DNA from: Parabacteroides goldsteinii DSM 19448 = WAL 12034 | Lineage (GTDB): Bacteria > Bacteroidota > Bacteroidia > Bacteroidales > Tannerellaceae | Reading direction: 5' to 3' | Length of the DNA stretch: 64,000 nucleotides | Assembly: GCF_000969835.1 (NCBI RefSeq) | Contig: NZ_KQ033912.1 | Span: 124,001 to 188,000, forward strand | Shown: positions 13,761 through 48,678 of the stretch, piece by piece | How positions within the stretch are numbered: the first letter of the stretch is position 1 | How the letters are laid out: each line of letters begins with the position of its first letter | Position numbers and translations under genes: made by a program | The notes under the pieces: generated by a model | Databases searched by the model: none | Told to the model about the DNA's origin: nothing | The model's input: the letters and a program-made list of their open reading frames with translations, nothing else

Positions 13761-16700
13761 TCAGACATTCGTATTCTTTACATCAGAAGATACTATCTCT
13801 TCATCCAGATAATGCTTTTCCACCAGATAGTATAAGGCAGGAAGCACATAAAGCGTAATAACGGTCGCAAACAACAGTCCGTACACAATCACCGTCGCCA
13901 GCGGACGTTGCACATCGGAACCGATACCTGTACTCAACGAGGCTGGCAGCAAACCGAGCACAGCCACCGTTGCCGTCATCAGAATCGGGCGGAAACGGTG
14001 TTTCGCCCCGGTTATGATTGACTGCTTAAAACCTCGGTCACGGCTACGCAGGTTATTGATATGCGAAATCATAATCACACCGTTTTGTATAGCGACACCA
14101 ATCAAGGCTATAAAACCGACGGCAGAAGAGACATTCAACGTCATCCCCCGGACATTCAATGCCAGCATCCCTCCGAAAAGGGCCAGGGGGAACCACACAC
14201 ATCATCAGAGCCGCCTGGCGGAATTTTCCACAGGCGGCAAACAGCAACAGCAGCATAATACCCAACGCCAAAGGGACTACTGCCGCCAGACGGTTATAGG
14301 CACGGTGCTGGTTCTCGAACTGACCGGCCCATTGCAGATGGACGGTGTCGTGATTATAATCTATGTCGCGGTCAATCAACCGGTTCGCTTTATTCAGAAA
14401 CTCCGTCAAATCCACGCCACGCAGGTTGACATGGATGGTCAGGTGACGCTTGTTCATCTCACGGGAGATTGTACTGGCACCGGTTGTCATTTTCACTTCG
14501 GCAACCTGCGAAAGCGGTATCTTTGCTCCGGCCCCATTCGTCAGTAAGAGATTGCCGATACTTTCAGGCGAGTTACGGCTGGCATCGTCGAAACGGCAAA
14601 TGACGTCATAACTTTTACTGCCGACAAAGATTTGCGAGATGGCCTTTCCCCCGATTGCCAGTTCAATCATATCGGCAACATCGGAGAAGTTCAGACCATA
14701 TTGGGCAATACGGTCGCGGTCGGCAATAATCTGCAACTGGGGTAACGGCGGTTCCTGGTCGATGGCTACGTCGGCGGCACCGGGAATCGTTCGCAACACA
14801 TTCACGACCTTATCGGCTATATGGCGGGTATCGGCAATATCATCTCCGTAAACCTTTATCGCCAGGTCGCTGTGAGCACCGGCAATCTGGTCCATGACCA
14901 TATCGATAATCGGCTGGGAGAAACTGACGGTATAACCGGGCATAGTCAACAACTTTTCAGACATTTCCTCGATCAGGTCCGCCTTCGTCTTGCCGAATTT
15001 CCAGGTGTCGTAAGGCTTCAACCCTACTCCGCATTCGATATGTGACAACGAGAAGGCTTCGGCTCCCTCATCGTCGCGTCCGACCTGTGTCATGACATAA
15101 GAGACTTCATCAAACTGTTTCAATGTTTTGCGAAGCTCCGCTCCCATCGCCTTCGACTTCTCGATAGAGATACCCGGAGGCAATTGCACCTGTACCCAGA
15201 TAGCCCCTTCGTCCAAAGGCGGAAGGAAATCTTTTCCTACCGTATAACTCAATACGCCGGCTGCCACCAGAATAAGGAACAAAGGTAACAGGACCCGCTT
15301 CGGTTTCTCCAGCAAAGCAATGATTTGCCGGTTATAGATCTCACCTAACTTTTCAAGCCAGCGGTTATGATAAATCTTCCTGGGTTTGTAATAAGCATAG
15401 AAAGCCAGGCCCGGTATCAGGAACAACGCCACAGCCAATGCCCCCAACAGGGCATAACCGACCGTATAAGCCATCGGCGTAAAGAGTTTCTTTTCGATAT
15501 GCTCAAAGGCAAACAGGGGAAGATAAGCAGTGATAATAATTAATGTAGAGAAGAAGATAGGGCGGGCCACTTCAGTTGCACGGCGCAGGATTGAATCTTC
15601 CGTCAATATTTCATCAGGATGCCGTTCGCGCTTCTTCAGAATTGTTTCCATCATTACGATAGCCCCGTCTACCAGGATACCAAAGTCGATAGCTCCCAGC
15701 GAAAGCAGGTTGGCAGGAATATCGGTCAGTTGCATCAGGATAAAAGCAATCAGCAACGACAACGGGATGGTCAGGGCAACCAGCAAGGCACCACGCCAGC
15801 TTCCGAGGAACAGGATGAGCACCAGCACCACCAGCACCATGCCTTCAAAAAGCGTATGGGAAACCGTATGCAATGTCGTATCCACCAGGTTCGTTCGGTC
15901 CATAAAGACATGCAGGCGGGTTCCTTTGGGAAGGGTTTCATTATTCAGTTCGTCGACCGCCTGATGCACTCCTTCCAGCACCTGCGAAGGATTCTCTCCG
16001 CGAAGCATCTGGACAATCCCTTCCACCCCATCGGAATAATCACGGACGCCGTCGTAGAATCCCAATACCCCTTTACGTTCCAGACTACCATATTTCAGGG
16101 TTCCTAAATCATCCAGGTAGACAGGTACACCGTCCTCGGTCTTGATAACGATACGTCCCAGGTCCTTCAGGTCTTTTACCAGTCCGATACCGCGAATTAC
16201 ATAACTCAGGTCGCCACGGCTTAACATACTGCCGCCGGCATTCACATTATTCTTTTCTATCTTCTCGGTGATATCGCCCAGCGTCACATTATATTGTTCC
16301 ATCTTGTGCGGGTTCACTTCTATCTGGTATTGGGTAGTGATACCGCCAAAGTTGCTGACATCGGCCACTCCCGTCACTTGCTTCAGACGGGGGATGACAA
16401 CCCATTTATGCAGGTCGGTCAGTTCGCGGATATCGAGTTGGTCGCTTTCCAGTACATAACGGAAGATTTCACCGGTAGGCGAAGTCAGCGGGTTCAATCC
16501 CGGAACGGCATCATAAGGAAGTTCCACGTCTACCAGGCGTTCCTGCACACGCTGACGTGCCCAGTAATCGTCGATACCGTCATCAAAAACCAGCACAACG
16601 GTCGAGAGGCCGAAAGTATTCTTACTTCGCATCACATTCAGTCCCGGCATCCCGTTCATCGCCCTTTCAATAGGGATACTGATTTGCTGTTCTATCTCTT

Positions 16701-16872
16701 CCGCCGCCAGTCCCGGCACCTGGGTAACGACCTGGACGGTCGTGTCGGCAATATCCGGATAGGCATCAATGGCCAGTCGGGTCCACGAATAATATCCCAC
16801 TACAGCAAGAAACAGGAATAATACGAACATCAGCCCCCGCCGGTGTATCGCAGTATATATTATCTTCTTCAT
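13761..16872 (-). pseudogene. Heavy-metal RND efflux pump (CusA/CzcA family), interrupted by a one-base frameshift
   Basis: Read from 16872, the frame encodes a CusA/CzcA-type inner-membrane pump: first TM segment, porter motifs, DFGILVDGAIVMMETI in TM4 (the acidic heavy-metal RND signature) and repeated TM blocks. It leaves frame at a run of five G on the plus strand (14186-14190), where one fewer base would continue VVPLALFGGMLALNVRG to the stop at 13761. The restored product would be about 1036 residues, the normal family length. As given, the product loses its last TM segments. Sequencing error, phase-variable tract and true pseudogene are all possible. Adaptor and channel genes flank it. 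Confidence 0.88.
14186..14190 (-). other. Frameshift site in the RND pump gene
   Basis: This is a GGGGG run on the plus strand (CCCCC in the coding strand). Four bases would restore the reading frame through VVPLALF. Homopolymers are common sites of both slipped-strand mutation and sequencing error. Confidence 0.8.
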
Positions 16873-16877
16873 AGAAT

Positions 16878-17987
16878 TTATCGTGCATCAAGTAAATAAA
16901 AGGCTCCGGTAGTTACAATCGTATCGCCGGAGTTCAGTCCGGTCAGGATAACCGTCTTGCCGTCTTCTGTGACAGAGGTAGTTACCTTCTGTTTGCGATA
17001 AGCATTGTTTCCCAATGAGACAAGCACATAAGCGCCTTCCTCTTCCTGAAGGATGGCAGATGTCGGGATACGGATGACATCGGCACTTCTGTCGCACAGC
17101 TTAACCGTCCCGTACATAGCCGGCTTCATCAGGTGGGCACTGTTGTCACATTCGATGAGGACTTCAACCGAACGGGTATCTTCGTCCAGCATTTCGCTGA
17201 CATGATAAATCTTTCCGGGCAAAGGCAGGTCGGGCATGGCTACCAGACGAATCTCAACGCTGTCCAGCGATTGTATCATTCCCATATCCTTTTCCTTGAC
17301 ATGGGCAGCCACCCATACTTTATTCAGGTTGGCTATCACGGCCACGGGTTCGGCATCTTCCTTGATATACTGGCCGATGACAATACGGTCGGTCACTATT
17401 TCGCCCGCTATCGGTGAGCGGACAATCAAAGGTTGTCCCAATACCAGGTCTTCCGGTTCTATCTGAAAGACCTTCAAAGCGGCAACAGCATTTTCATAGT
17501 CTTTCTTCTTCAATTCATAATTGACTTCCGCTTCTTCCAGTTCTTTCTGTACGCCGACCTTATTTTGCAGCAGGTCTTTTTCGCGTTTCAAGCTTTTCAG
17601 GGCCAGTTCCATCTCCTGTTTAGCCTGATAATACCCTTTTCCCGTCTCAAAGAAAGAAGGAGAACTTATCTCAAAGACCGGACTTCCGGGCGTCACCATC
17701 TGCCCCAACCGTACGAATGATTTGGAGATACGTCCGGCAAAAGGGGAAGCAATCTCGGCATAATTGGAGGGGATAGCTTTCACCACCCCCGAAGTGGAAA
17801 ACTCCAGGCGGTAAGGTTCTTTCTTCACTACGTCTGTTTTCAACCGGGATAAGATAGGTGATTTATCCCCTATTTGTATCGTGTCGCCCCGTAAAGTTAC
17901 GGCAATAGCAACCTCATCGTCCTGCTTGTTCTGGTTGCAGGAACATAATACCATTGCTGGAAGCAATAGCATAAGTAATTGTTTCAT
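16878..17987 (-). CDS. RND efflux periplasmic adaptor lipoprotein (CusB/CzcB-like)
   Basis: A 369-residue lipoprotein (signal ending VLCSC, Cys 16). It has the membrane-fusion layout: a lipoyl-type half motif (IASPFAGRISKSFVRLGQMVTPGSPVFEI), a helical hairpin (about 120-175), the second half motif (VRSPIAGEIVTDRIVIGQYIKEDAEPVAVI) and a C-terminal beta-barrel with IPTSAILQEEEGAYVLVSLG. It connects the pump to the TolC-like channel. The gene lies 5 bp before the pump gene and 45 bp after the His-rich membrane protein gene, forming one operon. Confidence 0.92.
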   Translation of the reverse strand: MKQLLMLLLPAMVLCSCNQNKQDDEVAIAVTLRGDTIQIGDKSPILSRLKTDVVKKEPYRLEFSTSGVVKAIPSNYAEIASPFAGRISKSFVRLGQMVTPGSPVFEISSPSFFETGKGYYQAKQEMELALKSLKREKDLLQNKVGVQKELEEAEVNYELKKKDYENAVAALKVFQIEPEDLVLGQPLIVRSPIAGEIVTDRIVIGQYIKEDAEPVAVIANLNKVWVAAHVKEKDMGMIQSLDSVEIRLVAMPDLPLPGKIYHVSEMLDEDTRSVEVLIECDNSAHLMKPAMYGTVKLCDRSADVIRIPTSAILQEEEGAYVLVSLGNNAYRKQKVTTSVTEDGKTVILTGLNSGDTIVTTGAFYLLDAR

Positions 17988-38223: not shown

Positions 38224-38921
38224 TTATATCAGAAATCTGTCCCATCTGAATTTATCCGTATATGGGTCTACCGACTTCCAGATAATCCATGCTTTCCCGA
38301 CAGTATATTCTTCAGGTAGTAATCCCCAATAGCGTGAATCCTGTGAGTTCATGCCTTTGTCGCCAGCCATGAAATAATAGTTTTCTTGGAAACGATATCT
38401 GTAGATCGGCTTTCCATTAAGAAAAGTCGTAGAATCCTTGTATTGAAGACTACCCTGTTGTTCCCATTCGATCAGTTTTTTATATAACCGGAAGTTTGTA
38501 CGCCTTCCACATGAAAGAATCCGTTTCGGATGGATAGGGTATCTCCCGGTATTCCGACACACCGTTTGATGTAATATTTGAGTATATGCATTTCAATTTT
38601 ATCCCAACTGTTTGGATGCGGAAAATTGAAAACCAGAATATCATTGCGTTTTATCTTTTTGAAACCGGGAATGCGATAAATCTCTGTTTGTTCGTTTCGC
38701 ATGGAGGCAAACAGGTTGAATATGCGAGGTCCGACGGTCGGTTTCCAGACAAGTATATTGTCTCCTGTAATTAATCCCGGTTCCATCGAATCGCTGGGGA
38801 TTTTGAAAGAGGCAAAGACAAATACCTGTAAAACAAGCCATAGAGTAACTGTCATACATAGCCAGAAGACTATATTGACGGCTTTGTTGATCAGGGTATG
38901 TATTTTTCTATGCTCTTTCAT
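38224..38921 (-). pseudogene. Signal peptidase I-like gene (frameshifted), linked to the NVEALA modules
   Basis: From 38921 a protein begins with one TM helix (about 18-37), SFKIPSDSMEPGL (catalytic Ser45), KRNDILVFNFPHP and YYIKRCVGIPGD (catalytic Lys119). It loses frame at about 38480-38510 within FFHVEG and ends after 149 residues. The second frame carries the rest: LYKKLIEWEQQG, NYYFMAGDKGMNSQDSRYWG and FLI. One inserted base would join them to about 232 residues. Both catalytic residues are in the first part, but the box E region would be lost. It is downstream of the third NVEALA module, 187 bp after the propeller gene. Confidence 0.82.
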
Positions 38922-39108
38922 CGAATTAATAGCTTTTTATACTGTCGTTTTCAATAAAAAATATCCGTTGGTTAACGATCCTTTCCGGAATAGTGAACCA
39001 TAATAATGCATTAGCGGATATTTGATTGTATGTTTATGTTGTATCAGTTGAACTTGCTATTTGCACGTGTAAATATGACTATGATCAATAGATGCTTTCC
39101 TATTTTTC

Positions 39109-40152
39109 TTATATATCTTTTAGATCATATGCAAGAATATGATCATCCTCATCTATGCCATATAATGTTTTATTCTTCTCATTAATAGAAAAATACAGTA
39201 CATTGGCATTCAAATATAGTTTATATTTAAAAACTCCGTTCCAATCGTAAGTATATAAAACAGAATTATTGTTTTTGTCTTTTCTTAGTCCAAAAAGAAG
39301 TGAGTCAGTAGCAAATGCCTCATAATGTATTTGCTTTTTTTGTTCAATTGCATATTTTGTATTTAATCCCATATTTGATAATCCTATTTTTGTTTTATTT
39401 TTCGTGTTCAGATCAATTATTATTATAGCATCCATATAAGTATAAAATAATGCTATTTTATCTCTGTTTGGTTTGATTACAGGATAAGCACTGTATATTA
39501 AATTATTTTCAAAATTTATACCTTTCAAATTGTTAATATAAATTGTATCATAAACTATATTTGAGCAATAATTTAGTTTTACATAAAACGGATTTGTGTT
39601 TTCTTTAAAAGTTTGAGATCTTATAGGATCTTTAGTTAATAAAAAAACAGAATCACTTAATTCAAAAACAGCATTAGATTCCTCAAATATATTTTTCATA
39701 TCATTGCTTTTTGTGAAATCAACTTTCTTCTCAAAAAAAGTATTGTTGTTTTTTATTGATTTGTTGATATTTAATAACCCCATAAAGTTTGGATAGGATT
39801 GTATCCAAAGTAAAGATTCATTATTTTGTTGAAAAAACTGATTAAATCGTGTAAATAAAACGATTTCATTAGGTCCATTACCTTTGCGAAGAAAATTTCC
39901 CAGTATCTTGTAATCATTAACACTGTATACTTTTATTATTTTATTCTCATGTCGTTGAACAAATACTAAGAATGTATCAATTGCTACTATTCCTGTTGGA
40001 TTCAAAATATCAATTGGAAGTAACTGAGGTGATAAAGAATATTCTACAGCCTCTTCTTTTATATATTTTGTCGTAAACTTATTATTTTCATATTTTTTAC
40101 AACCAATCAATAGTATGAACGATAGTAAAATATAACCTGTTATTTTATTCAT
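39109..40152 (-). CDS. Six-bladed beta-propeller (TolB-like) lipoprotein, NVEALA module 1
   Basis: A 347-residue lipoprotein (signal LSFILLIGC, Cys 18). The conserved block ILGNFLRKGNGPNEI (about 86-100) is the TolB-like six-blade propeller mark; LYTYDWNGVFKYKLYLN and KNKTLYGIDEDDHILAYDL end the fold. It is visibly more AT-rich than its neighbours. It follows NVEALA peptide 1 by 146 bp and precedes the broken signal peptidase gene. The two other propeller proteins in this island share the layout but little sequence. Confidence 0.82.
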   Translation of the reverse strand: MNKITGYILLSFILLIGCKKYENNKFTTKYIKEEAVEYSLSPQLLPIDILNPTGIVAIDTFLVFVQRHENKIIKVYSVNDYKILGNFLRKGNGPNEIVLFTRFNQFFQQNNESLLWIQSYPNFMGLLNINKSIKNNNTFFEKKVDFTKSNDMKNIFEESNAVFELSDSVFLLTKDPIRSQTFKENTNPFYVKLNYCSNIVYDTIYINNLKGINFENNLIYSAYPVIKPNRDKIALFYTYMDAIIIIDLNTKNKTKIGLSNMGLNTKYAIEQKKQIHYEAFATDSLLFGLRKDKNNNSVLYTYDWNGVFKYKLYLNANVLYFSINEKNKTLYGIDEDDHILAYDLKDI

Positions 40153-40298
40153 AAATCTTCTATTGTTAAAAATATTAGCTATTGTTATATCCTAGAAAAC
40201 TACTTTATAAAAACAATTAATTTATCATTTATATATTGTTATTTCCTAGGAGAAACATTTCAAATTTTTACTAATATATTGGTGTCAATTCTTGTTTA

Positions 40299-40625
40299 CT
40301 AAATATATGTATAGCATTTTCCAACCAAAGTAACACCCCATGCTGGCTTTTGTGACGTGGCAGCTCCACAAGGGTAGTGAACAGATGTATCAGATGAATA
40401 TTGGCTACAAGTCAAATAAATATTACTATCATAACCACTAAAAGCAGTATAACAATCTTTTACAACCGTGGGGCCCCACCCTTCTTCTTCCCATCTAGCT
40501 AACGCCTCCACGTTAGCTAAAGCCAAGTCAGAGAGTTCCACCTCGTTCTGACTCTGGCTGTAATTCCAGCCTGCTGCAAGAGCTATGGCAGTAAACAGAA
40601 CTGCCAAAAAAATCTTAAGTTTCAT
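40299..40625 (-). CDS. NVEALA family secreted peptide 1
   Basis: The 108-residue product has a hydrophobic N-terminus (LKIFLAVLFTAIALAAG), the leader QSQNEVELSDLALANVEALA with the motif at 38-43, and a variable, non-conserved C-terminal part with four Cys (KDCYTAF, LTCSQY, HYPCGAA, GKCYTYI). Family members are short Bacteroidales proteins of unknown function. The Cys suggest disulfide bonds after export. No lipobox is present. It is the longest of the three here. Confidence 0.85.
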   Translation of the reverse strand: MKLKIFLAVLFTAIALAAGWNYSQSQNEVELSDLALANVEALARWEEEGWGPTVVKDCYTAFSGYDSNIYLTCSQYSSDTSVHYPCGAATSQKPAWGVTLVGKCYTYI

Positions 40626-40665
40626 ATCTTAATCTTTTTATTTGTTATTTGATCGGGTTATTTTC

Positions 40666-40673
40666 TATCTTTG
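40666..40673 (+). promoter_or_regulatory. Plus-strand promoter-like element opposite the NVEALA 1 gene
   Basis: TATCTTTG fits the -7 consensus and TTTG lies 21 bases upstream (40641-40644). It points away from the NVEALA gene, into the DUF1573 remnant. An equivalent TATCTTTG is at 43126-43133 in the second copy. Confidence 0.4.
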
Positions 40674-40729
40674 CCTACTCTTCTTCGGATTTAGATAGTC
40701 GAATGAAGTGATTCATTCTGTTTTGTCGG

Positions 40730-40756
40730 TTATATTACCATCATACACCTCCTTTT
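40730..40756 (-). promoter_or_regulatory. Strong ribosome-binding site and four-codon micro-ORF, copy A
   Basis: On the minus strand AAAAGGAGGTGT is followed by ATG ATG GTA ATA TAA. The same arrangement occurs at 43191-43217. Strong Shine-Dalgarno sites are uncommon in this phylum, so its conservation before two NVEALA genes is notable. Confidence 0.45.
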
Positions 40757-40766
40757 CGAGGTCTCC

Positions 40767-40809
40767 GGGAGTTTGCTTGTACTATTTTGCGGTTGTGCAG
40801 CAAACTCCC
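40767..40809. terminator. Perfect 11-bp hairpin before NVEALA 1, copy A
   Basis: GGGAGTTTGCT and AGCAAACTCCC are separated by about 21 bases. There is no T-tract on either side, so an attenuator or RNA element is as likely as a terminator. The same hairpin is at 43228-43269. Confidence 0.5.
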
Positions 40810-40819
40810 ATTCGTTCGA

Positions 40820-41165
40820 TCACCGAACATTCCCCTTTATCTTTACTTTGACAGGTTGATTGTTAATACTATTGTACTTGATCGTAACGACTTCATCGAA
40901 GAAACCTGTGTCTTTCGGTGTCATCTTAATTCCTACCCGAAGAGATTCTCCGGGTTTCGCAGGTCGTTTGTCATAGGTGGCTGCCGTGCAGCCGCAGGTG
41001 GTACTTACGTCCACGATCACAAGGGGATTGTCCCCGGTGTTTTTTATTTCTATGGTTGTCTCCTTTACTCCCGATTTGTCGAAAGTACCGAAATCGATTT
41101 CTGTCTTTGTTGCTTCGGCTGCTGTTTTCGGTATATTTTTGTTTGGGCTGTGTACCAGGTTTTCC
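40820..41165 (-). pseudogene. Truncated DUF1573 domain (remnant)
   Basis: From the motif SPNKNIPKT onward the frame matches the C-terminal half of the intact DUF1573 gene at 43280-44161 almost residue for residue (TEIDFGTFDKSGVKETTIEI, VDVSTTCGCTAATYDKRPAK). Upstream of it there is a stop codon and then the 41172 gene, so signal peptide and thioredoxin-like domain are missing. It is probably a recombination remnant. Confidence 0.8.
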
Positions 41166-41171
41166 TGGTTT

Positions 41172-41738
41172 CTACTTTACATTGAATGAATCTAATATTT
41201 CTTTTATCTTCTCGTTAATCTCAGATTGTTCTGCTAAATTATTTCTCAAAGATATTTTTATACAATGTACAATATTTTTATTTTGCTTAAATAAATAATA
41301 GGTACGATATGTGACAGTTTTACCGTCCATTTCTTTACTATCTTTAATTATGAAAAATCTTTTTTGCTCTTTGGTTGGCCATATGTTATTTTTTTTTACT
41401 GGTACGGGAGAAGATATAAGAGACATTTCTAATTGTTCTATCTCTTCTACTGATAAAGTTTTATTGTCTGTTTTTTGATAGCTTTGTATATCTATACCGA
41501 TTGTTTTTGGAATATCTTCTATGTTTTTAATGGGAGTGCTCCATGCCCAATAAAAAAGATGAAATCCATTAATGTCTCTTTCTCCCGGATTTATTCCATC
41601 TCCAGGCATTCCTGACATAGGTTCCCACTCAGCTGGAATACAAATTGAATACAACTTATTAGTTATTATTTTTAATCCATTGTCACTAGTAAAAGAACAT
41701 AAGATTAGTATTATAGGGAAAATGTATGTTTTTATCAT
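41172..41738 (-). CDS. Secreted protein of unknown family in NVEALA module 2
   Basis: A 188-residue protein with an N-terminal signal (TYIFPIILILCSFTSDN). The mature part has alternating beta and helix (KLYSICIPAEWEPMSG, ERDINGFHLFYWAWSTP, GKTVTYRTYYLFKQNKNIVHCIKISLR). It could be a PsbP/DcrB-like fold, judged only from pattern. Its start overlaps the propeller gene's stop by 4 bp (translational coupling). It is AT-rich and is followed directly by the DUF1573 remnant. Confidence 0.6.
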   Translation of the reverse strand: MIKTYIFPIILILCSFTSDNGLKIITNKLYSICIPAEWEPMSGMPGDGINPGERDINGFHLFYWAWSTPIKNIEDIPKTIGIDIQSYQKTDNKTLSVEEIEQLEMSLISSPVPVKKNNIWPTKEQKRFFIIKDSKEMDGKTVTYRTYYLFKQNKNIVHCIKISLRNNLAEQSEINEKIKEILDSFNVK

Positions 41739-42766
41739 TTTTCTTTTATTTTAGGTAAATCGTATATATATATTTCATTTTCAATACTGTTGTCTAAAGC
41801 GTATAATTTATTATATTTTCTGCTAATGGCCATTAATGATATCTTTCTGTCAAATTCAAAACAAGCAATAGCTCTGCCTTCCCAAGTCCAAACTTGTAGT
41901 TCACAGTGATTATCCTTCTTTGTATTACGTGGATTGGAATTCTCACACAATATGTAGATATGATCATTAGTAGCATAGGGTTGCCCCATATAATAACCTG
42001 ATTGATACTGTACTTCTTCTTCAAAATTTGTAGAATAAGGTTCAATTTGTACATCTATATCATGTAATAAGTGAGCATTCTGATCATATATCCTCAAATG
42101 TTTGAAACGTGCATAAAAACTTGCAAATTTTTTACCATTAGGATGGACAACACAGGTTTTCAAATAAGTAACAAATAGAGGAGGAGTATTCTTTTTTCTT
42201 TTAATTTCAACCCAATTTGGATAAATATCTGTTTTAATAATTTCTCCCGTTTTTTCATTTAGCAAACAGTATTCATTTTCTTCATCTAGTCTTCCTAAAG
42301 TCAGATATATATCGTCCGCTAGTGGATAAAAGCCATTATTAGAAATCCCCTGTTCAAAAACGGGTTGATTATTAACTACTTTGAGCTCATTATTTTGAAT
42401 AGCAACAGTTTTCAAAAGATTACTTCCTACTTCTAACACCTTAAATTCATTTTCATATAAATAAAAACTACGTGTATCTAATAGATTGAAATCATTAGGA
42501 CCTTGTCCTCGATTTCCCATATCTCCAATATAAGAACAATCAGGAAGATTAAAAAGGGAGAAAAGTTTTTCTTCCTTTTCTTTATAAACAACTAATTTTT
42601 CACCAACAATTCCCATATAACGAGGCAACAAGACAGGCACGGGTAATTGTGTTACCTGTGCCTGTAGTTTACCTGTTTGTGGAAATGAAGTTACAATTGT
42701 TGCTTTCTCATTGTCATGATCACATGCATTAAGAACAAATAACAATAATAATAATAGATGCTTCAT
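41735..42766 (-). CDS. Six-bladed beta-propeller (TolB-like) lipoprotein, NVEALA module 2
   Basis: A 343-residue lipoprotein (signal LLFVLNAC, Cys 15) with SYIGDMGNRGQGPNDF at about 76-91, the same G-x-x-G-x-G-P-x-(D/E) block as in the other two propeller proteins. Other blade-like segments are MGIVGEKLVVYKEKEEKLFSLF, ILCENSNP and LYALDNSIENEIYIYDL. AT-rich. It follows NVEALA 2 by 33 bp and overlaps the next gene by 4 bp. Confidence 0.82.
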   Translation of the reverse strand: MKHLLLLLLFVLNACDHDNEKATIVTSFPQTGKLQAQVTQLPVPVLLPRYMGIVGEKLVVYKEKEEKLFSLFNLPDCSYIGDMGNRGQGPNDFNLLDTRSFYLYENEFKVLEVGSNLLKTVAIQNNELKVVNNQPVFEQGISNNGFYPLADDIYLTLGRLDEENEYCLLNEKTGEIIKTDIYPNWVEIKRKKNTPPLFVTYLKTCVVHPNGKKFASFYARFKHLRIYDQNAHLLHDIDVQIEPYSTNFEEEVQYQSGYYMGQPYATNDHIYILCENSNPRNTKKDNHCELQVWTWEGRAIACFEFDRKISLMAISRKYNKLYALDNSIENEIYIYDLPKIKEK

Positions 42767-42799
42767 AATAACAACATTCCTTAAATAAACATTCGTGAA

Positions 42800-43072
42800 T
42801 TAATGCCAACAACGTTCTTGCTGCCAAACACTTACTGCTGTACTGGAATTACAATCCATACAACGTGTATAAGTAAAAAAGAAAGAAGAATTATCGTCTT
42901 GACTAAATCTAAAGCAAACCCATCCGTCTGGGGTCCATTCGTTGAAAGCCAAAGCTTCCACATTAGCAAGTGCCAGTTCTGATAATTCCACTTGATTTTG
43001 ACTCTGGATGAAATTCCAGCCTGCTGTAGCTGCTATCGCAACTAGAGCCATGATACCGAATAACTTTTTCAT
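42800..43072 (-). CDS. NVEALA family secreted peptide 2
   Basis: The 90-residue product has a hydrophobic N-terminus (GIMALVAIAATAG), a leader QSQNQVELSELALANVEALA (motif at 37-42), closely like peptide 1, and a different tail with four Cys (WVCFRF, TRCMDC, ERCWH). Leader conserved and tail variable: the pattern of a precursor whose business part is the C-terminus. It is preceded by the hairpin and micro-ORF copy B. Confidence 0.87.
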   Translation of the reverse strand: MKKLFGIMALVAIAATAGWNFIQSQNQVELSELALANVEALAFNEWTPDGWVCFRFSQDDNSSFFFTYTRCMDCNSSTAVSVWQQERCWH

Positions 43073-43190
43073 ATTCGTATATGTTTAATTATTTATTAAA
43101 ATCATTATTTAATCAGGCTATTTTCTATCTTTGCCTACTGTTATTCGGATTAGATAGTCGAATGGCACCTGTATCATTCTGTTTTGTCGG

Positions 43191-43217
43191 TTATATTACC
43201 ATCATACACCTCCTTTT
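43191..43217 (-). promoter_or_regulatory. Strong ribosome-binding site and four-codon micro-ORF, copy B
   Basis: AAAAGGAGGTGT followed by ATG ATG GTA ATA TAA on the minus strand, matching copy A. It lies about 120 bases before the NVEALA 2 start. Confidence 0.45.
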
Positions 43218-43227
43218 CGGGGTCTCC

Positions 43228-43269
43228 GGGAGTTTGCTTGTACAATTCGAGGTCGTGCAGCAAACTCCC
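43228..43269. terminator. Perfect 11-bp hairpin before NVEALA 2, copy B
   Basis: GGGAGTTTGCT and AGCAAACTCCC about 20 bases apart, just downstream of the DUF1573 stop on the minus strand. It has no T-tract; attenuator or structured RNA is possible. Confidence 0.5.
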
Positions 43270-43279
43270 ATTTGTTCGA

Positions 43280-44161
43280 TCACTGAACATTCCCCTTCAT
43301 CTTTACTTTGACAGGTTGATTGTTAATACTATTGTACTTGATCGTCACGACTTCATCGAAGAAACCTGTGTCTTTCGGTGTCATCTTAATTCCCACCCGA
43401 AGGGTTTCTCCGGTTTTTGCAGGTCGTTTGTCGTATGTGGCTGCTGTGCAGCCGCAGGTGGTACTTACGTCCACTATCACAAGGGGATTGTCCCCGGTGT
43501 TTTTTATTTCTATGGTCGTCTCCTTTACTTCCGATTTGTCGAAAGTACCGAAGTCGATTTCTGTCTTTGTTGTTTCGGCTGTTGTTTTCGGTATATTTTT
43601 GTTCGGACTGTCCTTACCTGTAATCTGTTTCAGATACAGTTCTTTAACATCTGTGTTATGTACCGGATTCCCTAATACAGTGACTTTATTGTCCTTATCT
43701 AGCAGGAATGTCTGGAAAGTTATGTCTGCCGGGAATTTGTTCAGTTTGTTTAGTCGATCGTCTATATCAATACAGATAGGGCGATCGAATGCGTCTCGTT
43801 TCAGGAGGTAACGTATTTCCTTCGCATCTTTTGGATGCATGAAGAAGAGGAAAGGAACTTTTCCCTGTGTTACTGAATCAGTGTATTCGATCAGTTCCTT
43901 CCATTTATGAAGTTGCAGTTTACAACTGGTGCAACCGATAGAGTCTACATATATTAATACCTTATATTCAGATTGTGGGATTTGGAAATCCGTAGTATCT
44001 GTCAGATAGCGGGTGAAGGTCAGGTTTTCAGGGAACTGTATTTGTTTCCCTTGCCATTCGCTGACCAGATGCGCAATCTTATTTTCCTTCTCTTTCTGTT
44101 CGTTGTAGCAGGAAAAGAAGGTGGTTGCTATTAATAATATGTAAAGATAAAAGGCTTTCAT
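43280..44161 (-). CDS. Thioredoxin-like/DUF1573 lipoprotein
   Basis: A 293-residue lipoprotein (signal TFFSC, Cys 18). Residues about 60-180 look thioredoxin-like (YKVLIYVDSIGCTSCKLQLHKWKELI, with C-T-S-C, and CIDIDDRLNKLNKFPADITFQTFLLDKDNKV). The C-terminal part from about 200 is DUF1573, an immunoglobulin-like domain (TEIDFGTFDKSEVKETTIEIKNTGDNPLVIVDVSTTCGCTAATYDK). It may keep Cys-containing substrates, such as the linked peptides, in the right redox state (inference). The intact copy is the third gene of module 3. Confidence 0.88.
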   Translation of the reverse strand: MKAFYLYILLIATTFFSCYNEQKEKENKIAHLVSEWQGKQIQFPENLTFTRYLTDTTDFQIPQSEYKVLIYVDSIGCTSCKLQLHKWKELIEYTDSVTQGKVPFLFFMHPKDAKEIRYLLKRDAFDRPICIDIDDRLNKLNKFPADITFQTFLLDKDNKVTVLGNPVHNTDVKELYLKQITGKDSPNKNIPKTTAETTKTEIDFGTFDKSEVKETTIEIKNTGDNPLVIVDVSTTCGCTAATYDKRPAKTGETLRVGIKMTPKDTGFFDEVVTIKYNSINNQPVKVKMKGNVQ

Positions 44162-44169
44162 ATCGTTTG

Positions 44170-45228
44170 CTAAATCTTAAATTCTATAATCGGATCATCG
44201 CTTTTCACCTCGGTGGCGACAATCGTATTTGTTTCTTCGTTTACATCAATGCCGTGTATTGCGTGATCAAGAGTGTATTTTTGTACCGGATTTCCTTTCA
44301 GGTCGAATACATAAATAAATCTGCCTCCGTCTTCCAGTTCTTTTCCCTGCTTATAGGCGGCCAATTCATCTTTTAACTTCATTCCCTGAAATACCGCATA
44401 AATGTATTTGTCGGTAACTTTTATATCATTGAATCCCATAATTCCGTCCGGGACACCTGAACCGTCACGTGCCGTTTTGAACTCGGGCTCTCCGTTTGGG
44501 CCATACAATACTTTATGCGTACTGTCTTTTAAATTGTATATTTCCAGTGTTTCTCCCAATTGGGTGGCCATTGCCAATATACCATTATCGGGATTATAGT
44601 CCATGAAGGGACGCCAAGCTTGTGCCAATGCCGGACGCGATGTCTCTTCTTCTGCTGCTTCGCTGGGTATAGTGCCGTGGTTTTGGATGGCTTTGCCATC
44701 GCCGTCTACTTCCCAAAAACGGTGCTCACCCATGTAGTCGGGAACCAAAAATCCCGATTCCATCGTATGAAAGTCGAGCGAACGGACTAATTTCTTATCT
44801 AATTTGATCTCTTCGACCCGTTCCGCTGAACCGTTAGTCGAAGAGATTTTCCAACGTGTAATCTCCATCTTATTGGCATCAAGTGCCCATAAAGAGTCTA
44901 AGGAGTTGAATTGGATGCTGATAGCCGATAGCATTTCCTGTGGGGCCTCTCCACGTCTACCGAATGAAGCGATGTGTTTCCATTCCGGATAGGTAAATGC
45001 ATGTAAATAATGATCCATATTATGTAGGTCCATGACAACAGCGATACTGTCCCTGACCGCTACCCGGAAGGGGTAGCGGAACAGGATAGTATCCAGGTTG
45101 ATTACCTGTGCACTGAGCGCCTTGGTTTTGGGAAAATCCGAGTATCTTGGAAAGTGCGAATCCGGAGAACTCGAACAGGCGGTCAGATAACTAATACCTA
45201 TTAATAATATGGATAAAGGATACTTCAT
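44170..45228 (-). CDS. Six-bladed beta-propeller (TolB-like) lipoprotein, NVEALA module 3
   Basis: A 352-residue lipoprotein (signal ISYLTAC, Cys 18). HIASFGRRGEAPQEM carries the conserved propeller block; TDKYIYAVFQGMKLKDE and YALDHAIHGIDVNEETNTIVATEV are others. Its base composition is close to the genome's, unlike the AT-rich modules 1 and 2. It begins directly after the NVEALA 3 stop (no gap). Confidence 0.85.
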   Translation of the reverse strand: MKYPLSILLIGISYLTACSSSPDSHFPRYSDFPKTKALSAQVINLDTILFRYPFRVAVRDSIAVVMDLHNMDHYLHAFTYPEWKHIASFGRRGEAPQEMLSAISIQFNSLDSLWALDANKMEITRWKISSTNGSAERVEEIKLDKKLVRSLDFHTMESGFLVPDYMGEHRFWEVDGDGKAIQNHGTIPSEAAEEETSRPALAQAWRPFMDYNPDNGILAMATQLGETLEIYNLKDSTHKVLYGPNGEPEFKTARDGSGVPDGIMGFNDIKVTDKYIYAVFQGMKLKDELAAYKQGKELEDGGRFIYVFDLKGNPVQKYTLDHAIHGIDVNEETNTIVATEVKSDDPIIEFKI

Positions 45229-45459
45229 CTATCTACAATTGATATATTTTCTTTTAACCCAATCTCCATAACAATCAACGGAACCTTCTCCCAAGCACAG
45301 AACATCTATATATTCATCTTCAGGATTTGCCAGGGCTTCGATGTTTGCAAATGTCAATTCTGTCATGCCGTTTTCATTGCTTTGTGCCGTATATAAATAA
45401 GTGGCAGCAATAAAGGATATCAGTCCTAATGTTAGTTTAAATGTTTTTTTTCTCATCAT
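45229..45459 (-). CDS. NVEALA family secreted peptide 3
   Basis: The 76-residue product starts MMRKKTFKLTLGLISFIAATYLYTAQ, then has a leader with FANIEALAN (motif at 39-44, NIEALA form) and a short tail with three Cys (VLCLG, VDCYG, INCR). It is the first gene of the island transcript, with a clear promoter upstream and the regulator gene divergent. Confidence 0.85.
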   Translation of the reverse strand: MMRKKTFKLTLGLISFIAATYLYTAQSNENGMTELTFANIEALANPEDEYIDVLCLGEGSVDCYGDWVKRKYINCR

Positions 45460-45479
45460 TTATTGTATTTAAGTTTTAA

Positions 45480-45510
45480 CGAAGATAGGGCTATTTATTT
45501 GAAAAAGCAA
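45480..45510 (-). promoter_or_regulatory. Predicted promoter of the NVEALA 3 transcript
   Basis: On the minus strand TTGC (45507-45510), 19 bases, then TATCTTCG (45480-45487), a good -33/-7 pair. The start codon is 21 bases on. Confidence 0.6.
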
Positions 45511-45595
45511 GTGCGTTTACTCTTTTGAGATAGTGAAAATCAAAGATCTTGTCATTTTTACTGGTTAGCGATTAGTATAGTATTGAGATGGATGG

Positions 45596-45633
45596 ATGCA
45601 AAAGATATGCAGTTTATATGCATATAATATGCA
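45596..45633. repeat. Four ATGCA sites phased by 11 bp
   Basis: ATGCA begins at 45596, 45607, 45618 and 45629, exactly 11 bp apart (about one helical turn). The last three are within ATATGCA. The array lies between the divergent promoters of NVEALA 3 and the regulator gene and is well placed for a cooperative regulator. Confidence 0.65.
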
Positions 45634-45733
45634 AGAACCTATTTTCTGTTTGATAATGTTTTGTTTATGGCTTTGCATGAATTGAGCATATTTTATATTT
45701 AAGATTAAAGCTTATTGTTGAAAAAAATATTCA

Positions 45734-45741
45734 TATTTTTG
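45734..45741 (+). promoter_or_regulatory. Predicted -7 box of the regulator gene
   Basis: TATTTTTG matches TAnnTTTG exactly and ends 22 bases before the ATG at 45764. The -33 box is not clear (TTG at 45715-45717). Confidence 0.5.
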
Positions 45742-45763
45742 TTGAAATAAACAGATTGAATCT

Positions 45764-46822
45764 ATGAAAAAAAACATGAGTCTATATTGGGCATTTTTTA
45801 TTTTGTCGGTAATCCTGAGCGGAGGCATACTCTATTATAAGGTATATAACGAAATAAAGATAGAAGCGTATGATATTTTTGAAGAAGTAGTGAATATGGA
45901 TGTTGATGCGCGGATAAAAAATGAAAAAGTTGTTTATAAGAGGGTGAAAAAGGAGCAGTTTCATTTGGATTCTACCTATATTCAGACGTCAGCGGGAATA
46001 GATGCCCAAAGAAAAGAATTAACGTCGAATGCATCCAATAAGTATAACCTGATGCAGCATTATCTCAGTGATTGTACTCCCGTGCAAGTTTCGGCCATTG
46101 ATAGTTTGTTTCAGATTGTTTTACAACGAGCTGGCATTTCTGCTAAAACTGTTGTAAAATCTATAGGAAAAGATTTCCCAGATAAATCGGCAGATGTGGT
46201 TACTTACAGTAAAGACATCCCTTTTATCTTTTTATATGTTGATTTGCCGATGAAAAAAATAGAAATGCCGGTTTACAATTTTACTTTAGGTTTGCAGGGC
46301 TTTATTCAATGTCCATTCTCTTATTTGTTAAAGAAGGCGCAGCACTTATTCTTATTCTGGTTTTTGGTATCAATTTTGGCTATTGCTTTATTGGTGCTAA
46401 TACTATTTACGATAAGTCCGTTTATCCGGAAAAGAGGTAGAATTCTTTTTCCGAAAAATAAGGGATCTGATATTATCAAACATGTAGAACAAACAACCAG
46501 GGAGTGGCTGAGCGTTACAGATACAATTCTTCTGGATGAAATAAGTGGCGAAGTTAAGTGTGATGATGAAATAGTATTACGTTTAAAAGGGTTGAATTTA
46601 AAGTTATTTGCTCTATTTGTTAAAAACAAGGATGTTTGTGTTGTGTATGATCAGTTGAAAGTAGATATATGGAATAATGAGAATTTAAGTAATGCAACAA
46701 TAAGTATACAAATTGGAAAATTGGAGAAAGAATTACAAACAAAAATACCATTTTTGTCTATTGAAAATATTCGTGGAGTAGGATATCATTTAGTAGTTTC
46801 TAAATCGCCTTCCGACAAATGA
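45764..46822 (+). CDS. Membrane-anchored winged-helix transcriptional regulator (ToxR-like layout)
   Basis: A 352-residue protein with TM helices at about 7-25 and 195-220. The loop between them (about 26-194) is helical at first (EAYDIFEEVVNMDVDARIKNEKVVYKRVK) and later beta, and lies outside the cytoplasm. After TM2 comes an OmpR-type winged-helix domain (about 235-352) ending IENIRGVGYHLVV. There is no kinase or receiver domain. It could carry a signal from the periplasm directly to DNA, the reverse of the ToxR order. Divergent from the NVEALA transcript, so probably its regulator (inference). Confidence 0.78.
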   Translation: MKKNMSLYWAFFILSVILSGGILYYKVYNEIKIEAYDIFEEVVNMDVDARIKNEKVVYKRVKKEQFHLDSTYIQTSAGIDAQRKELTSNASNKYNLMQHYLSDCTPVQVSAIDSLFQIVLQRAGISAKTVVKSIGKDFPDKSADVVTYSKDIPFIFLYVDLPMKKIEMPVYNFTLGLQGFIQCPFSYLLKKAQHLFLFWFLVSILAIALLVLILFTISPFIRKRGRILFPKNKGSDIIKHVEQTTREWLSVTDTILLDEISGEVKCDDEIVLRLKGLNLKLFALFVKNKDVCVVYDQLKVDIWNNENLSNATISIQIGKLEKELQTKIPFLSIENIRGVGYHLVVSKSPSDK

Positions 46823-47325: not shown

Positions 47326-47434
47326 GCAGCTTTGAGAATTGAAAAAAGTATACCTTTATCATATATACAACTATATATATTACAGTTAATACTTAATTTT
47401 CAATTCTCAATTTTAATTTTCAAAGCAAAACCCC

Positions 47435-47442
47435 TACCTTTG
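47435..47442 (+). promoter_or_regulatory. Predicted -7 box of the DUF4105 gene
   Basis: TACCTTTG fits TAnnTTTG exactly, 21 bases before the ATG at 47464. Confidence 0.55.
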
Positions 47443-47463
47443 TACGGTAAAAACAAATATCGT

Positions 47464-48678
47464 ATGAAAAAGAACCTGCTTCTGCTTTTCCTGTTCCTTT
47501 GCTTGATTCCGGCAAAGGCACAAACCGGATTAAGCGACGAAGCGCAGATAAGCATATTGACGGCAGCTCCATCCGACGATGAAGTGTATACCGTGTACGG
47601 ACATACGGCCATACGGGTAAAAGATACTTTACGTAAACTTGATACAGTTTTCAATTATGGTATCTTCGATTTCTCAAAACCCAACTTCATCTATCGTTTT
47701 ACAAAAGGAGAAACCGATTATAAACTGGCAGCCTATAATTTTTCACATTATATAATAGAATATCAGATGCGGGGAAGTGAAGTAACCGAACAGGTACTCA
47801 ACCTCACTCCCGAAGAGACCCATAAGATATGGAATGCCTTGATAACGAATGTACAACCGGAAAACGCCGTTTACCGATACAATTTCTTTTTCGACAATTG
47901 CGCGACTCGTCCGGTTGCCATTGTGGAGGAACAGGTAGACGGGAAAGTGCAATATAACAACCCGCCCGAACCTCAAACATTCCGCGACCTTATAAATTAT
48001 TGCACACGTAATCATCCCTGGCTGACATTCGGATGCGATCTGGCACTCGGAAGTCCGACCGACCGGATCGCCACCCCGCATGAAATGATGTTCCTGCCGC
48101 TTTACCTGAAAGATGAATTTGAAAAAGCAACAATCGTGAACCCCGACGGAAGCGAAAGGAAACTGATAAAACAGACAAACCGGCTGGCTGAACAACTGAC
48201 AGACGACAATAATGGCAGTAAGATATGGTTTACGCCTATGTTATGCAGCATGATTTTTTTCCTGCTGATAGCAGCAATCACATTCATAGAATGGAAGAAA
48301 AAAACATATTTCCGCCTGGTGGATTGTATCCTCTTTTTCCTTGCTGGACTGGCGGGTACGGTATTGTTCTTCCTTTGTTTTATATCGACTCATCCTTGCA
48401 TCTGGCCGAACTGGTCGATTGTGTGGTTACAACCTTTCGCCCTTATCGCTGTTATTTTGTTTGCAGTAAAAAAGTTCGGAAAGGCTGCATATTATTATCA
48501 TTTTATTAACTTTGCGGCGCTTACGCTGCTGTTGGCGGGTTGGTATTTCATTCCGCAACACTTAAATATAGCTTTTATCCCGCTTGTTGCCACGCTTTGG
48601 CTACGTTCCGGATACGGTATATACAGGGGTAATATGGCAATTAAAGAATGTGCCAATATGCCAATAAAAGGAAAATGA
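47464..48678 (+). CDS. DUF4105 domain membrane protein
   Basis: A 404-residue protein starting MKKNLLLLFLFLCLIPAKAQ, a signal peptide. An earlier in-frame ATG at 47332 is rejected because it lies in AT-rich DNA upstream of the -7 box. The DUF4105 domain (about 25-225: YTVYGHTAIRVKD, NYGIFDFSKPNF, YNFFFDNCATRPV) contains a Cys/His pattern compatible with an NlpC/P60-related hydrolase. Four TM helices follow. The alkaline-phosphatase-like gene begins 18 bp downstream. Confidence 0.85.
   Translation: MKKNLLLLFLFLCLIPAKAQTGLSDEAQISILTAAPSDDEVYTVYGHTAIRVKDTLRKLDTVFNYGIFDFSKPNFIYRFTKGETDYKLAAYNFSHYIIEYQMRGSEVTEQVLNLTPEETHKIWNALITNVQPENAVYRYNFFFDNCATRPVAIVEEQVDGKVQYNNPPEPQTFRDLINYCTRNHPWLTFGCDLALGSPTDRIATPHEMMFLPLYLKDEFEKATIVNPDGSERKLIKQTNRLAEQLTDDNNGSKIWFTPMLCSMIFFLLIAAITFIEWKKKTYFRLVDCILFFLAGLAGTVLFFLCFISTHPCIWPNWSIVWLQPFALIAVILFAVKKFGKAAYYYHFINFAALTLLLAGWYFIPQHLNIAFIPLVATLWLRSGYGIYRGNMAIKECANMPIKGK

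What the first reader, a model, noticed from the sequence alone, without database searches (positions are those of the whole stretch)
38224..46822. Three-module NVEALA peptide / propeller lipoprotein system with its own regulator
Seen: three minus-strand modules, each an NVEALA peptide gene, a TolB-like six-blade propeller lipoprotein gene, and a third gene (thioredoxin-like/DUF1573, an unknown secreted protein plus a DUF1573 remnant, or a signal peptidase I). A membrane-anchored winged-helix regulator is divergent. Known: NVEALA and TolB-like propeller families are Bacteroidales proteins without an assigned function. Inferred: the peptides are exported, cut and oxidised, and the propeller lipoproteins bind or display the matching peptide. 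The repeated modules, with a conserved leader and varied tails, suggest diversification, as in signalling, immunity or antagonism between strains.
Basis: partly seen in the sequence, partly recalled or inferred. Interest (0 to 1): 0.82.

Follow-up and report, generated by a model that had tools for sequence, protein, structure and literature searches.

The report
Mobile peptide and propeller partner cassettes
Gut Bacteroidales carry swappable gene pairs, each a small cysteine-rich exported peptide with its own matching propeller-shaped lipoprotein, which look like either mini-weapons with antidotes or private chemical signals with receivers; the copy in this window is real, but its peptide-cutting enzyme gene is broken.

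Summary
Three NVEALA peptide genes, each followed by a propeller lipoprotein gene, lie beside a divergent two-TM winged-helix regulator. The 'signal peptidase' is a pseudogene (169-nt internal deletion). The modules are not equivalent: one class A peptide (conserved tail, next to the regulator) and two class B peptides (variable tails).
Comparative tests support linkage. In NVEALA-first regions, 99 of 104 class B peptides have a propeller next downstream, against 76 of 753 other genes. A dedicated signal peptidase occurs in 21 of 23 NVEALA-positive and 0 of 15 negative Parabacteroides genomes.
New result: class B tails co-vary with the adjacent propeller (r 0.71; 0 of 1000 within-locus shuffles reach it), whereas leaders do not (r 0.08) and instead follow the host locus. 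So tail plus propeller is exchanged as one cognate cassette behind a locally kept leader, also on Phocaeicola plasmids.
Best reading: secreted, SPase-cut, disulfide peptides with cognate propeller partners. Class B peptides rarely lack a propeller, while many propellers lack a peptide, which favours bacteriocin plus immunity over pheromone plus receptor. Binding and activity are untested. My term searches of the held open library found no description of the system.

The parts
45764..46822 (+). Regulator: N-terminal TM, ~160-residue predicted periplasmic domain, second TM, cytoplasmic winged helix (PF00486)
   Evidence: relatives adjoin class A peptides in 65 of 77 and 36 of 51 cases, class B in 0 of 81 and 0 of 102
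45229..45459 (-). Class A NVEALA propeptide (tail with C-x3-G-x3-C motif)
   Evidence: PF14055 44.8 bits; class defined
44170..45228 (-). Class A propeller lipoprotein (BF3164 type, PF15869)
   Evidence: 295.2 bits; alignment A1
43280..44161 (-). Lipoprotein with ResA-like thioredoxin domain (CxxC) and DUF1573/ASH domain
   Evidence: PF07610; C77, C80, C236 invariant in 36 aligned; model and PDB matches
42947..43611 (-). Upstream copy of the duplicated flank: end of DUF1573 gene, intergenic stretch, NVEALA leader
42800..43072 (-). Class B NVEALA propeptide 1 (4 Cys in tail)
   Evidence: PF14055 43.9 bits; its tail (0.54) and propeller (0.52) both resemble those of one module in L199
41735..42766 (-). 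Propeller lipoprotein of class B peptide 1
   Evidence: PF15869 41.6 bits
41172..41738 (-). Unknown predicted secreted protein, 188 aa, overlapping the stop of the propeller gene
   Evidence: no Pfam family over cut-off, no NCBIfam match
40497..41151 (-). Downstream copy of the duplicated flank, including a DUF1573 remnant (ORF 40820-41020)
40299..40625 (-). Class B NVEALA propeptide 2 (4 Cys in tail)
   Evidence: PF14055 44.5 bits; no close tail relative found: best propeller relative 0.18, its tail 0.11, at background
39109..40152 (-). Propeller lipoprotein of class B peptide 2
   Evidence: below PF15869 cut-off but a propeller by model
38233..38938 (-). Broken dedicated signal peptidase I (169 nt absent relative to L001, frame lost)

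Best explanation
This is a polymorphic cassette system. SHOWN BY COMPARISON: class B NVEALA genes consist of a leader that follows the host locus and a variable Cys-rich tail that travels as one unit with the propeller lipoprotein gene next to it, so tail and propeller are cognate partners; a dedicated signal peptidase I and a Trx/DUF1573 lipoprotein co-occur with NVEALA genes. INFERRED: the leader inserts in the inner membrane; the dedicated SPase cuts after A-L-A; the Trx protein helps form or correct disulfides; the propeller binds its own tail. MOST LIKELY FUNCTION (about 45%): class B peptides act against related bacteria and the propeller lipoprotein is the specific immunity protein, while the conserved class A peptide with its propeller and the two-TM winged-helix regulator senses and induces the locus, much as class II bacteriocin loci pair a pheromone with bacteriocins that share one leader type (recalled). 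In this window the SPase copy is broken and my profiles found no transglutaminase-like or Wzy-like partner, so this copy is probably impaired or relies on another copy.
For: Next-gene linkage, NVEALA-first regions: class B 99 of 104, class A 36 of 52, control 76 of 753 non-NVEALA genes; propeller-first loci: 72 of 77, 61 of 75, control 108 of 963. Class B co-variation: tail~propeller r 0.705, leader~propeller 0.076; within-locus shuffles mean 0.303, max 0.492, 0 of 1000 reach; leader 104 of 1000 reach; leader~SPase 0.41 but tail 0.04 and propeller 0.095. One pair per propeller type: tail above the 99th percentile of between-type pairs in 30 of 33, leader in 2 of 33. Glu at +3 of the assumed cut in 265 of 304 and Ala (not Ser, Gly, Thr) at -1 in 295 of 304. 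Even Cys in class B 94 of 107 and 76 of 84. Dedicated SPase in 21 of 23 against 0 of 15 genomes, Trx/DUF1573 in 19 of 23 against 0 of 15 (Fisher). Asymmetry: class B peptides rarely lack a propeller, yet 136 of 321 non-A propellers lack a peptide, 64 of those with a peptide-linked relative (35% identity or more over 70% of length) in another locus. Plasmid carriage. In-window duplication whose match ends at the NVEALA motif; class B propellers AT-richer than core genes in 135 of 143 modules.
Against: No binding, toxicity or expression data exist here. Spearman rho for class B tail~propeller is only 0.06, because most pairs are unrelated noise; the signal lies in related pairs. Of the two class B modules in the window itself, one has no related tail in the set. 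Leader and tail do not differ in GC (leader higher in 72 of 143, p 0.49). No C39-type exporter was seen among the annotated recurrent families, so passage through the outer membrane is unexplained. Class A is conserved across genera, and two loci (L009, L022) have it without class B at that place (their genomes G005 and G008 have further NVEALA genes elsewhere), which fits a non-antagonistic core function. Class A linkage is weaker: 16 of 52 NVEALA-first class A peptides are not directly followed by a propeller, 10 of them by another NVEALA gene. Orphan propellers may be other-function members of broad families; 19 of 136 have peptide-like remnants upstream. The A-L-A site lies about 18 residues past the hydrophobic stretch, farther than is usual for SPase I (recalled). 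The Ala at -3 is largely built into the motif used to cut the peptides. Transglutaminase-like gene: score exactly at cut-off in one member, none in another.
Confidence: 0.5

Rival explanations
1. Polymorphic pheromone and receptor system (kin or pherotype recognition): each tail is a signal and its propeller lipoprotein the receptor that passes the state to the cell, with the two-TM regulator reading class A.
For: Cognate pairing and cassette exchange fit pherotypes equally well; a sensor-like regulator adjoins class A only; class A tail and propeller also co-vary (r 0.735, rho 0.768).
Against: No regulator of this family adjoins class B peptides (0 of 81, 0 of 102), so how a class B propeller would signal inward is unclear; class B peptides rarely lack a propeller while propellers often lack peptides, more expected of toxin and immunity.
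Confidence: 0.3
2. The peptide is a co-exported structural or maturation partner of its propeller (for example a bound segment or assembly aid), and variation reflects interaction with host ligands, phage or surface glycans, not other bacteria.
For: Tight gene linkage, short gap for class A (median 3 and 9 bp in the two sets), class A tail with residues shared across genera beyond the defining motif, Wzy-like and transglutaminase-like neighbours suggesting surface chemistry.
Against: 136 of 321 non-A propellers stand without a peptide; the dedicated SPase suggests that the peptide is released.
Confidence: 0.17
3. Accidental hitchhiking of unrelated AT-rich lipoprotein and small-peptide genes in a recombination hot spot.
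For: AT-rich cassettes and duplicated flanks.
Against: Linkage 99 of 104 against 76 of 753, within-locus shuffles 0 of 1000, genome-level co-occurrence with the SPase 21 of 23 against 0 of 15.
Confidence: 0.03

Closest known systems
Class II bacteriocin regulons with pheromone (plantaricin type; recalled)
   Same: Several small peptides share one leader type; one conserved peptide lies by the regulator; variable peptides each have a partner gene; Cys-containing tails
   Different: Leader ends in A-L-A, not Gly-Gly; no C39 exporter seen among annotated neighbours; partner is a propeller lipoprotein; one-component two-TM regulator instead of a histidine kinase system
Polymorphic toxin and immunity cassettes (PMC3482391: passages seen)
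   Same: Constant N-terminal part, variable C-terminal part moved with its adjacent partner gene; arrays of partner genes without the effector, like the polyimmunity loci named there
   Different: Class B tails are short (quartiles 35-47 residues); no family match was looked for beyond NVEALA in the tails; partners are propellers of several families
Pfam families NVEALA (PF14055), TolB_like (PF15869), DUF5128 (PF17170), DUF4221 (PF13970)
   Same: The genes belong to these families
   Different: Family names without a joint system found in my searches; solved structures 4raa (BF0058, 'putative exported protein') and 3s9j (BVU_1028, DUF4221) are relatives by fold or sequence
Phocaeicola plasmids pPvulCL10_1 and pBdorCL06T03-4
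   Same: NVEALA and propeller pairs (five on the first; four in the 49 kb seen of the second); on the first, a block of NVEALA, propeller, redoxin, lepB, O-antigen ligase, hypothetical and transglutaminase genes
   Different: Plasmid-borne; on the second, two transposase genes interrupt the block and no redoxin gene is annotated; annotated gene by gene only

Membership tests
NVEALA (PF14055) | Profile score over the curated cut-off | tested here: met
   43.9, 44.5 and 44.8 bits against 27
TolB_like propeller (PF15869) | Profile score over cut-off, 44170-45228 and 41735-42766 | tested here: met
   295.2 and 41.6 bits against 29.2
TolB_like propeller (PF15869) | Profile score over cut-off, 39109-40152 | tested here: not met
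   16.4 bits; the propeller fold itself is supported by the model, so it is filed as a propeller, not as a PF15869 member
Signal peptidase I (PF10502) | Intact reading frame over the whole domain | tested here: not met
   Domain recognised in both pieces but frame broken by a 169-nt deletion
Trx-like plus DUF1573 lipoprotein | CxxC in a thioredoxin-like fold and PF07610 | tested here: met
Double-glycine leader bacteriocins (class II, bacteroidetocin-like) | Gly-Gly before the cut | tested here: not met
   Ala at -1 in 295 of 304 peptides, Gly in 5; Leu at -2 is part of the motif used
Double-glycine leader bacteriocins (class II, bacteroidetocin-like) | C39 peptidase ABC exporter at the locus | tested here: inconclusive
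   None among the recurrent neighbour families whose representatives were annotated; not searched directly
Polymorphic toxin and immunity systems | Variable C-terminal part co-inherited with an adjacent partner, decoupled from the N-terminal part | tested here: met
Polymorphic toxin and immunity systems | Toxic activity neutralised by the partner | not testable with these tools
   needs experiment

The most novel reading that the evidence does not exclude
A new class of polymorphic intercellular peptide systems in Bacteroidales, chromosomal and plasmid-borne: SPase-processed disulfide peptides recognised with allele specificity by six-bladed propeller lipoproteins, exchanged as tail-plus-propeller cassettes by recombination at a conserved leader, and governed by a conserved class A peptide, propeller and transmembrane winged-helix regulator that acts as a built-in autoinducer circuit.
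Probability: 0.4. Interest if true: 0.9.

Novelty: new variant of a known kind. Interest (0 to 1): 0.76.

Why it matters
It turns several domains of unknown function (NVEALA, TolB_like, DUF5128, DUF4221, DUF1573) into one testable system with a clear prediction: each tail binds only its own propeller. If antagonism is right, it is an unrecognised peptide weapon and immunity repertoire of common gut Bacteroidales, also carried on plasmids; if signalling is right, it is a pherotype system in a phylum where few peptide signals are known (recalled).

Tried and rejected
Equal modules: rejected, because class A and class B differ in tail, neighbour and co-variation. Surface display by an acidic export signal: acidic residues after the lipobox averaged 0.38-0.87 in five positions across six families, by a crude pattern that found a lipobox in only part of each family (for example 74 of 109 class A propellers); no support. 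Foreign-composition boundary inside the peptide gene: leader and tail GC do not differ (leader higher in 72 of 143, p 0.49). Phage carriage: no match of propeller A or of one class B peptide (L078) in the phage collection. Regulator-first scan of genomes: 24 pattern stretches, none a relative; its protein search found 21 relatives. Simple motif counts: SPase Ser motif 61 of 70 and Lys motif 67 of 70; transglutaminase-like Cys motif 11 of 80 and His motif 55 of 80; the latter are not used as evidence of activity. Sequence searches of solved structures with the class A propeller profile and with a Trx homologue (L001:11069-11929) found none. NVEALA-profile ORFs over 150 aa, sought as natural fusions with a propeller: only one 154-aa ORF, present in two overlapping loci, no fusion. 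NCBIfam gave no family for propeller A.

Selection and dropped rows. One search kept the best 80 of 112 matches (78 loci); two of these records are labelled Clostridiales and Bacillales MAGs. One search used a motif pattern that left out 45 distinct NVEALA-profile ORFs; one search put back those that the profile could cut, leaving out tails under 12 residues. Class A is defined by C-x3-G-x3-C, so that motif and part of its even Cys count are by construction; likewise the cutting pattern fixes Ala at -3 and limits -1 to four residues. One search also needs a propeller of over 250 aa. NVEALA-first regions were picked by me from the listings: 80 regions from 38 genomes, that is 16 of the 23 positive genomes, 21 of the 22 and one; several short contigs were left out. 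The last 6 regions come from genomes first met through propeller loci, and some sampled genomes were in both sets. Identical peptides were removed within each set and across both sets. SPase and Trx thresholds (E below 1e-80 and 1e-40) were set after seeing the gap; below the Trx line, NVEALA-negative G440 has a 92-aa partial match (E 2.8e-31). Records OY726023.1 and OY725998.1 are unannotated assemblies called plasmids and were not used as plasmid evidence.
Full report

The signal peptidase here is a pseudogene. Relative to the intact gene in Parabacteroides faecis (L001), blocks of 436 and 270 nt align at 79% identity with 169 nt absent between them, and the frame changes. The DUF1573 remnant belongs to a duplication: 43611-42947 and 41151-40497 align, nearly base for base over the DUF1573 end and most of the intergenic stretch, less well in the leader, and the local match ends at the end of the NVEALA motif. 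It looks as if a module was inserted with a repeated flank plus leader (inference). GC falls to 25-31% in the two class B propellers against about 39-46% in the class A propeller and Trx genes. Among the window's genes my profiles found no transglutaminase-like or Wzy-like partner.

THE CONSERVED LOCUS. A profile of 20 propeller A relatives (A1) drew 78 loci (the best 80 of 112 matches) from named genomes: Parabacteroides, Bacteroides, Phocaeicola, Massilibacteroides, Petrimonas, Proteiniphilum, Tannerellaceae MAGs and a few others. A common layout recurs: regulator, class A peptide, class A propeller, Trx/DUF1573, then zero to several class B peptide and propeller pairs, and a transglutaminase-like lipoprotein (PF01841 exactly at cut-off in one member, none in another), a dedicated signal peptidase I (PF10502) and an O-antigen-ligase-like protein with TPRs (PF04932). 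Of 52 such loci of 15 kb or more, 49 hold the regulator, 45 Trx, 34 SPase, 41 transglutaminase-like and 29 Wzy-like genes; of 25 NVEALA-first loci of that size, 20, 21, 15, 16 and 6. Propellers next to class B peptides fall in several profile groups: PF15869-like, PF17170 (DUF5128) and PF13970 (DUF4221), by representatives.

TWO PEPTIDE CLASSES. Class A is defined here by C-x3-G-x3-C in a short tail; its consensus also shows G-S-V-D-C-P and K-V, which the definition does not demand. Class B tails vary, with mostly 4 or 6 cysteines. Cysteine number is even in 54 of 56 and 74 of 78 class A, and in 94 of 107 and 76 of 84 class B peptides (NVEALA-first and propeller-first sets); for class A this follows partly from the definition. 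The regulator adjoins class A in 65 of 77 and 36 of 51 cases and class B in 0 of 81 and 0 of 102. It has two hydrophobic segments in 79 of 92 family members of usable length.

NEIGHBOURHOOD TEST FROM THE NVEALA SIDE. PF14055 was sought in sampled genomes: over cut-off in 2 of 296 of the phylum, 5 of 119 of the order, 23 of 38 of the genus of G001 (locus L002, P. gordonii) and 22 of 41 of the genus of G013 (locus L034, B. cellulosilyticus). Eighty regions from 38 genomes with such matches, picked from the listings, were fetched. The next gene on the same strand is a propeller for 99 of 104 class B and 36 of 52 class A peptides that have a downstream gene on the contig; for other genes in the same regions it is 76 of 753. 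In the propeller-first loci: 72 of 77, 61 of 75 and 108 of 963. Ten of the 16 class A exceptions in the first set are followed by another NVEALA gene.

COGNATE CASSETTES. For 162 class B modules in 111 loci, all between-locus pairs were compared. Tail similarity follows propeller similarity (r 0.705; 0.61 without near-identical propellers), leader similarity does not (0.076). Shuffling propellers only among modules of the same locus (35 loci, 86 modules), which keeps relatedness of hosts, gives mean 0.303 and maximum 0.492 in 1000 trials; for leaders 104 of 1000 reach the observed value. Leaders follow the host locus (r with SPase 0.41, with class A propeller 0.38, with regulator 0.27) while tails (0.04 to 0.06) and class B propellers (0.06 to 0.10) do not. 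The rank correlation for class B is low (0.06), since most pairs are unrelated; the informative pairs are the related ones. To avoid counting families many times, one pair per propeller type was taken: tail similarity exceeds the 99th percentile of between-type pairs in 30 of 33 types, leader similarity in 2 of 33. Among 112 modules with a moderately close propeller relative, that relative is also the nearest tail in 72 and the nearest leader in 9. There are 76 propeller types among the 162 modules, 39 seen once, so the diversity is far from sampled out. The window module at 42800/41735 pairs in both tail (0.54) and propeller (0.52) with one in L199; the module at 40299/39109 has no close relative (propeller 0.18, tail 0.11).

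MATURATION. With peptides cut at the end of the motif, Ala is at -1 in 295 of 304 and Glu at +3 in 265 of 304; Ala at -3 (299 of 304) is largely fixed by the pattern used. A-x-A is the rule of signal peptidase I (recalled). A dedicated SPase, clearly separable from the roughly 470-residue housekeeping enzyme, occurs in 21 of 23 NVEALA-positive and 0 of 15 NVEALA-negative Parabacteroides genomes (Fisher p 9e-9); the Trx/DUF1573 protein in 19 of 23 and 0 of 15 (p 5e-7). The Trx protein keeps CxxC in 109 of 112 family members, has C77, C80 and C236 invariant in 36 aligned, and its model matches ASH/PapD domains and ResA-type thioredoxins. The hydrophobic stretch ends about 18 residues before the cut, so the propeptide may be membrane-held until cut: inference.

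MOBILITY. Two named Phocaeicola plasmids carry NVEALA and propeller pairs: five on pPvulCL10_1, with a block of redoxin, lepB, O-antigen ligase, hypothetical and transglutaminase genes after one pair; four in the 49 kb seen of pBdorCL06T03-4, where two transposase genes lie in the block and no redoxin is annotated. PLSDB types both as non-mobilizable although relaxase and tra genes are annotated on the first. One of the five pairs on pPvulCL10_1 matches a chromosomal Parabacteroides module, L014, in both propeller (48.6% identity) and, by eye, tail; the best propeller relatives of the other four are 23-29% identical. Class B propellers are AT-richer than core genes of their locus in 135 of 143 modules.

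WHAT IT DOES. Cognate pairing with cassette exchange behind a shared leader is what both toxin with immunity and signal with receptor predict. The asymmetry favours the first: class B peptides are rarely without a propeller, while 136 of 321 non-A propellers have no peptide, often behind another propeller, and 64 of these have a peptide-linked relative elsewhere. Against it, class A is conserved and stands without class B at L009 and L022, and nothing was tested for toxicity. I put bacteriocin-like antagonism at about 0.45, signalling at 0.3.

PRINT. 'NVEALA' gave no paper in the held open library; BF3164 gave one and a set of family terms one, both seen as listings; Pfam and DUF names gave five papers, seen as listings, mostly on malaria, presumably through gene numbers that read like PF14055. 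Wider term sets were seen as listings, and one plasmid name gave none. Polymorphic-toxin parallels were seen as passages of PMC3482391. Most subscription papers and all bioRxiv preprints are outside that library.

Noticed in passing
G003, G438, G444 and G435: Dedicated signal peptidase genes with stop codons inside occur in four other Parabacteroides genomes, so loss of this gene is recurrent; G003 also has a copy without stops, while both G438 copies bear one.
   Followed up: no
L248, L249, L250: The Phocaeicola plasmids repeat a small set of genes (single-stranded DNA-binding protein, small ORFs) between the NVEALA pairs, which may be a means of cassette insertion; RloB, TIR, SIR2 and retron-type genes lie on pPvulCL10_1.
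   Followed up: partly
L051, L052, L060, L066, L070: A protein of one family (glutaminase-A-like domains PF16335, PF17168, PF16334 in the L051 member) lies between the transglutaminase-like and signal peptidase genes in these Bacteroides loci.
   Followed up: no
window 41172-41738: A 188-residue predicted secreted protein without family follows class B propeller 1; proteins of similar size and position follow propellers in L048 and L054, similarity judged by eye only.
   Followed up: no
window 14053-17987: Genes matching my RND pump and HlyD-type adaptor profiles, far from the locus.
   Followed up: no
window 47332-48678: Lnb N-terminal periplasmic and transmembrane domain protein (PF13387, PF25221); looks ordinary.
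   Followed up: no
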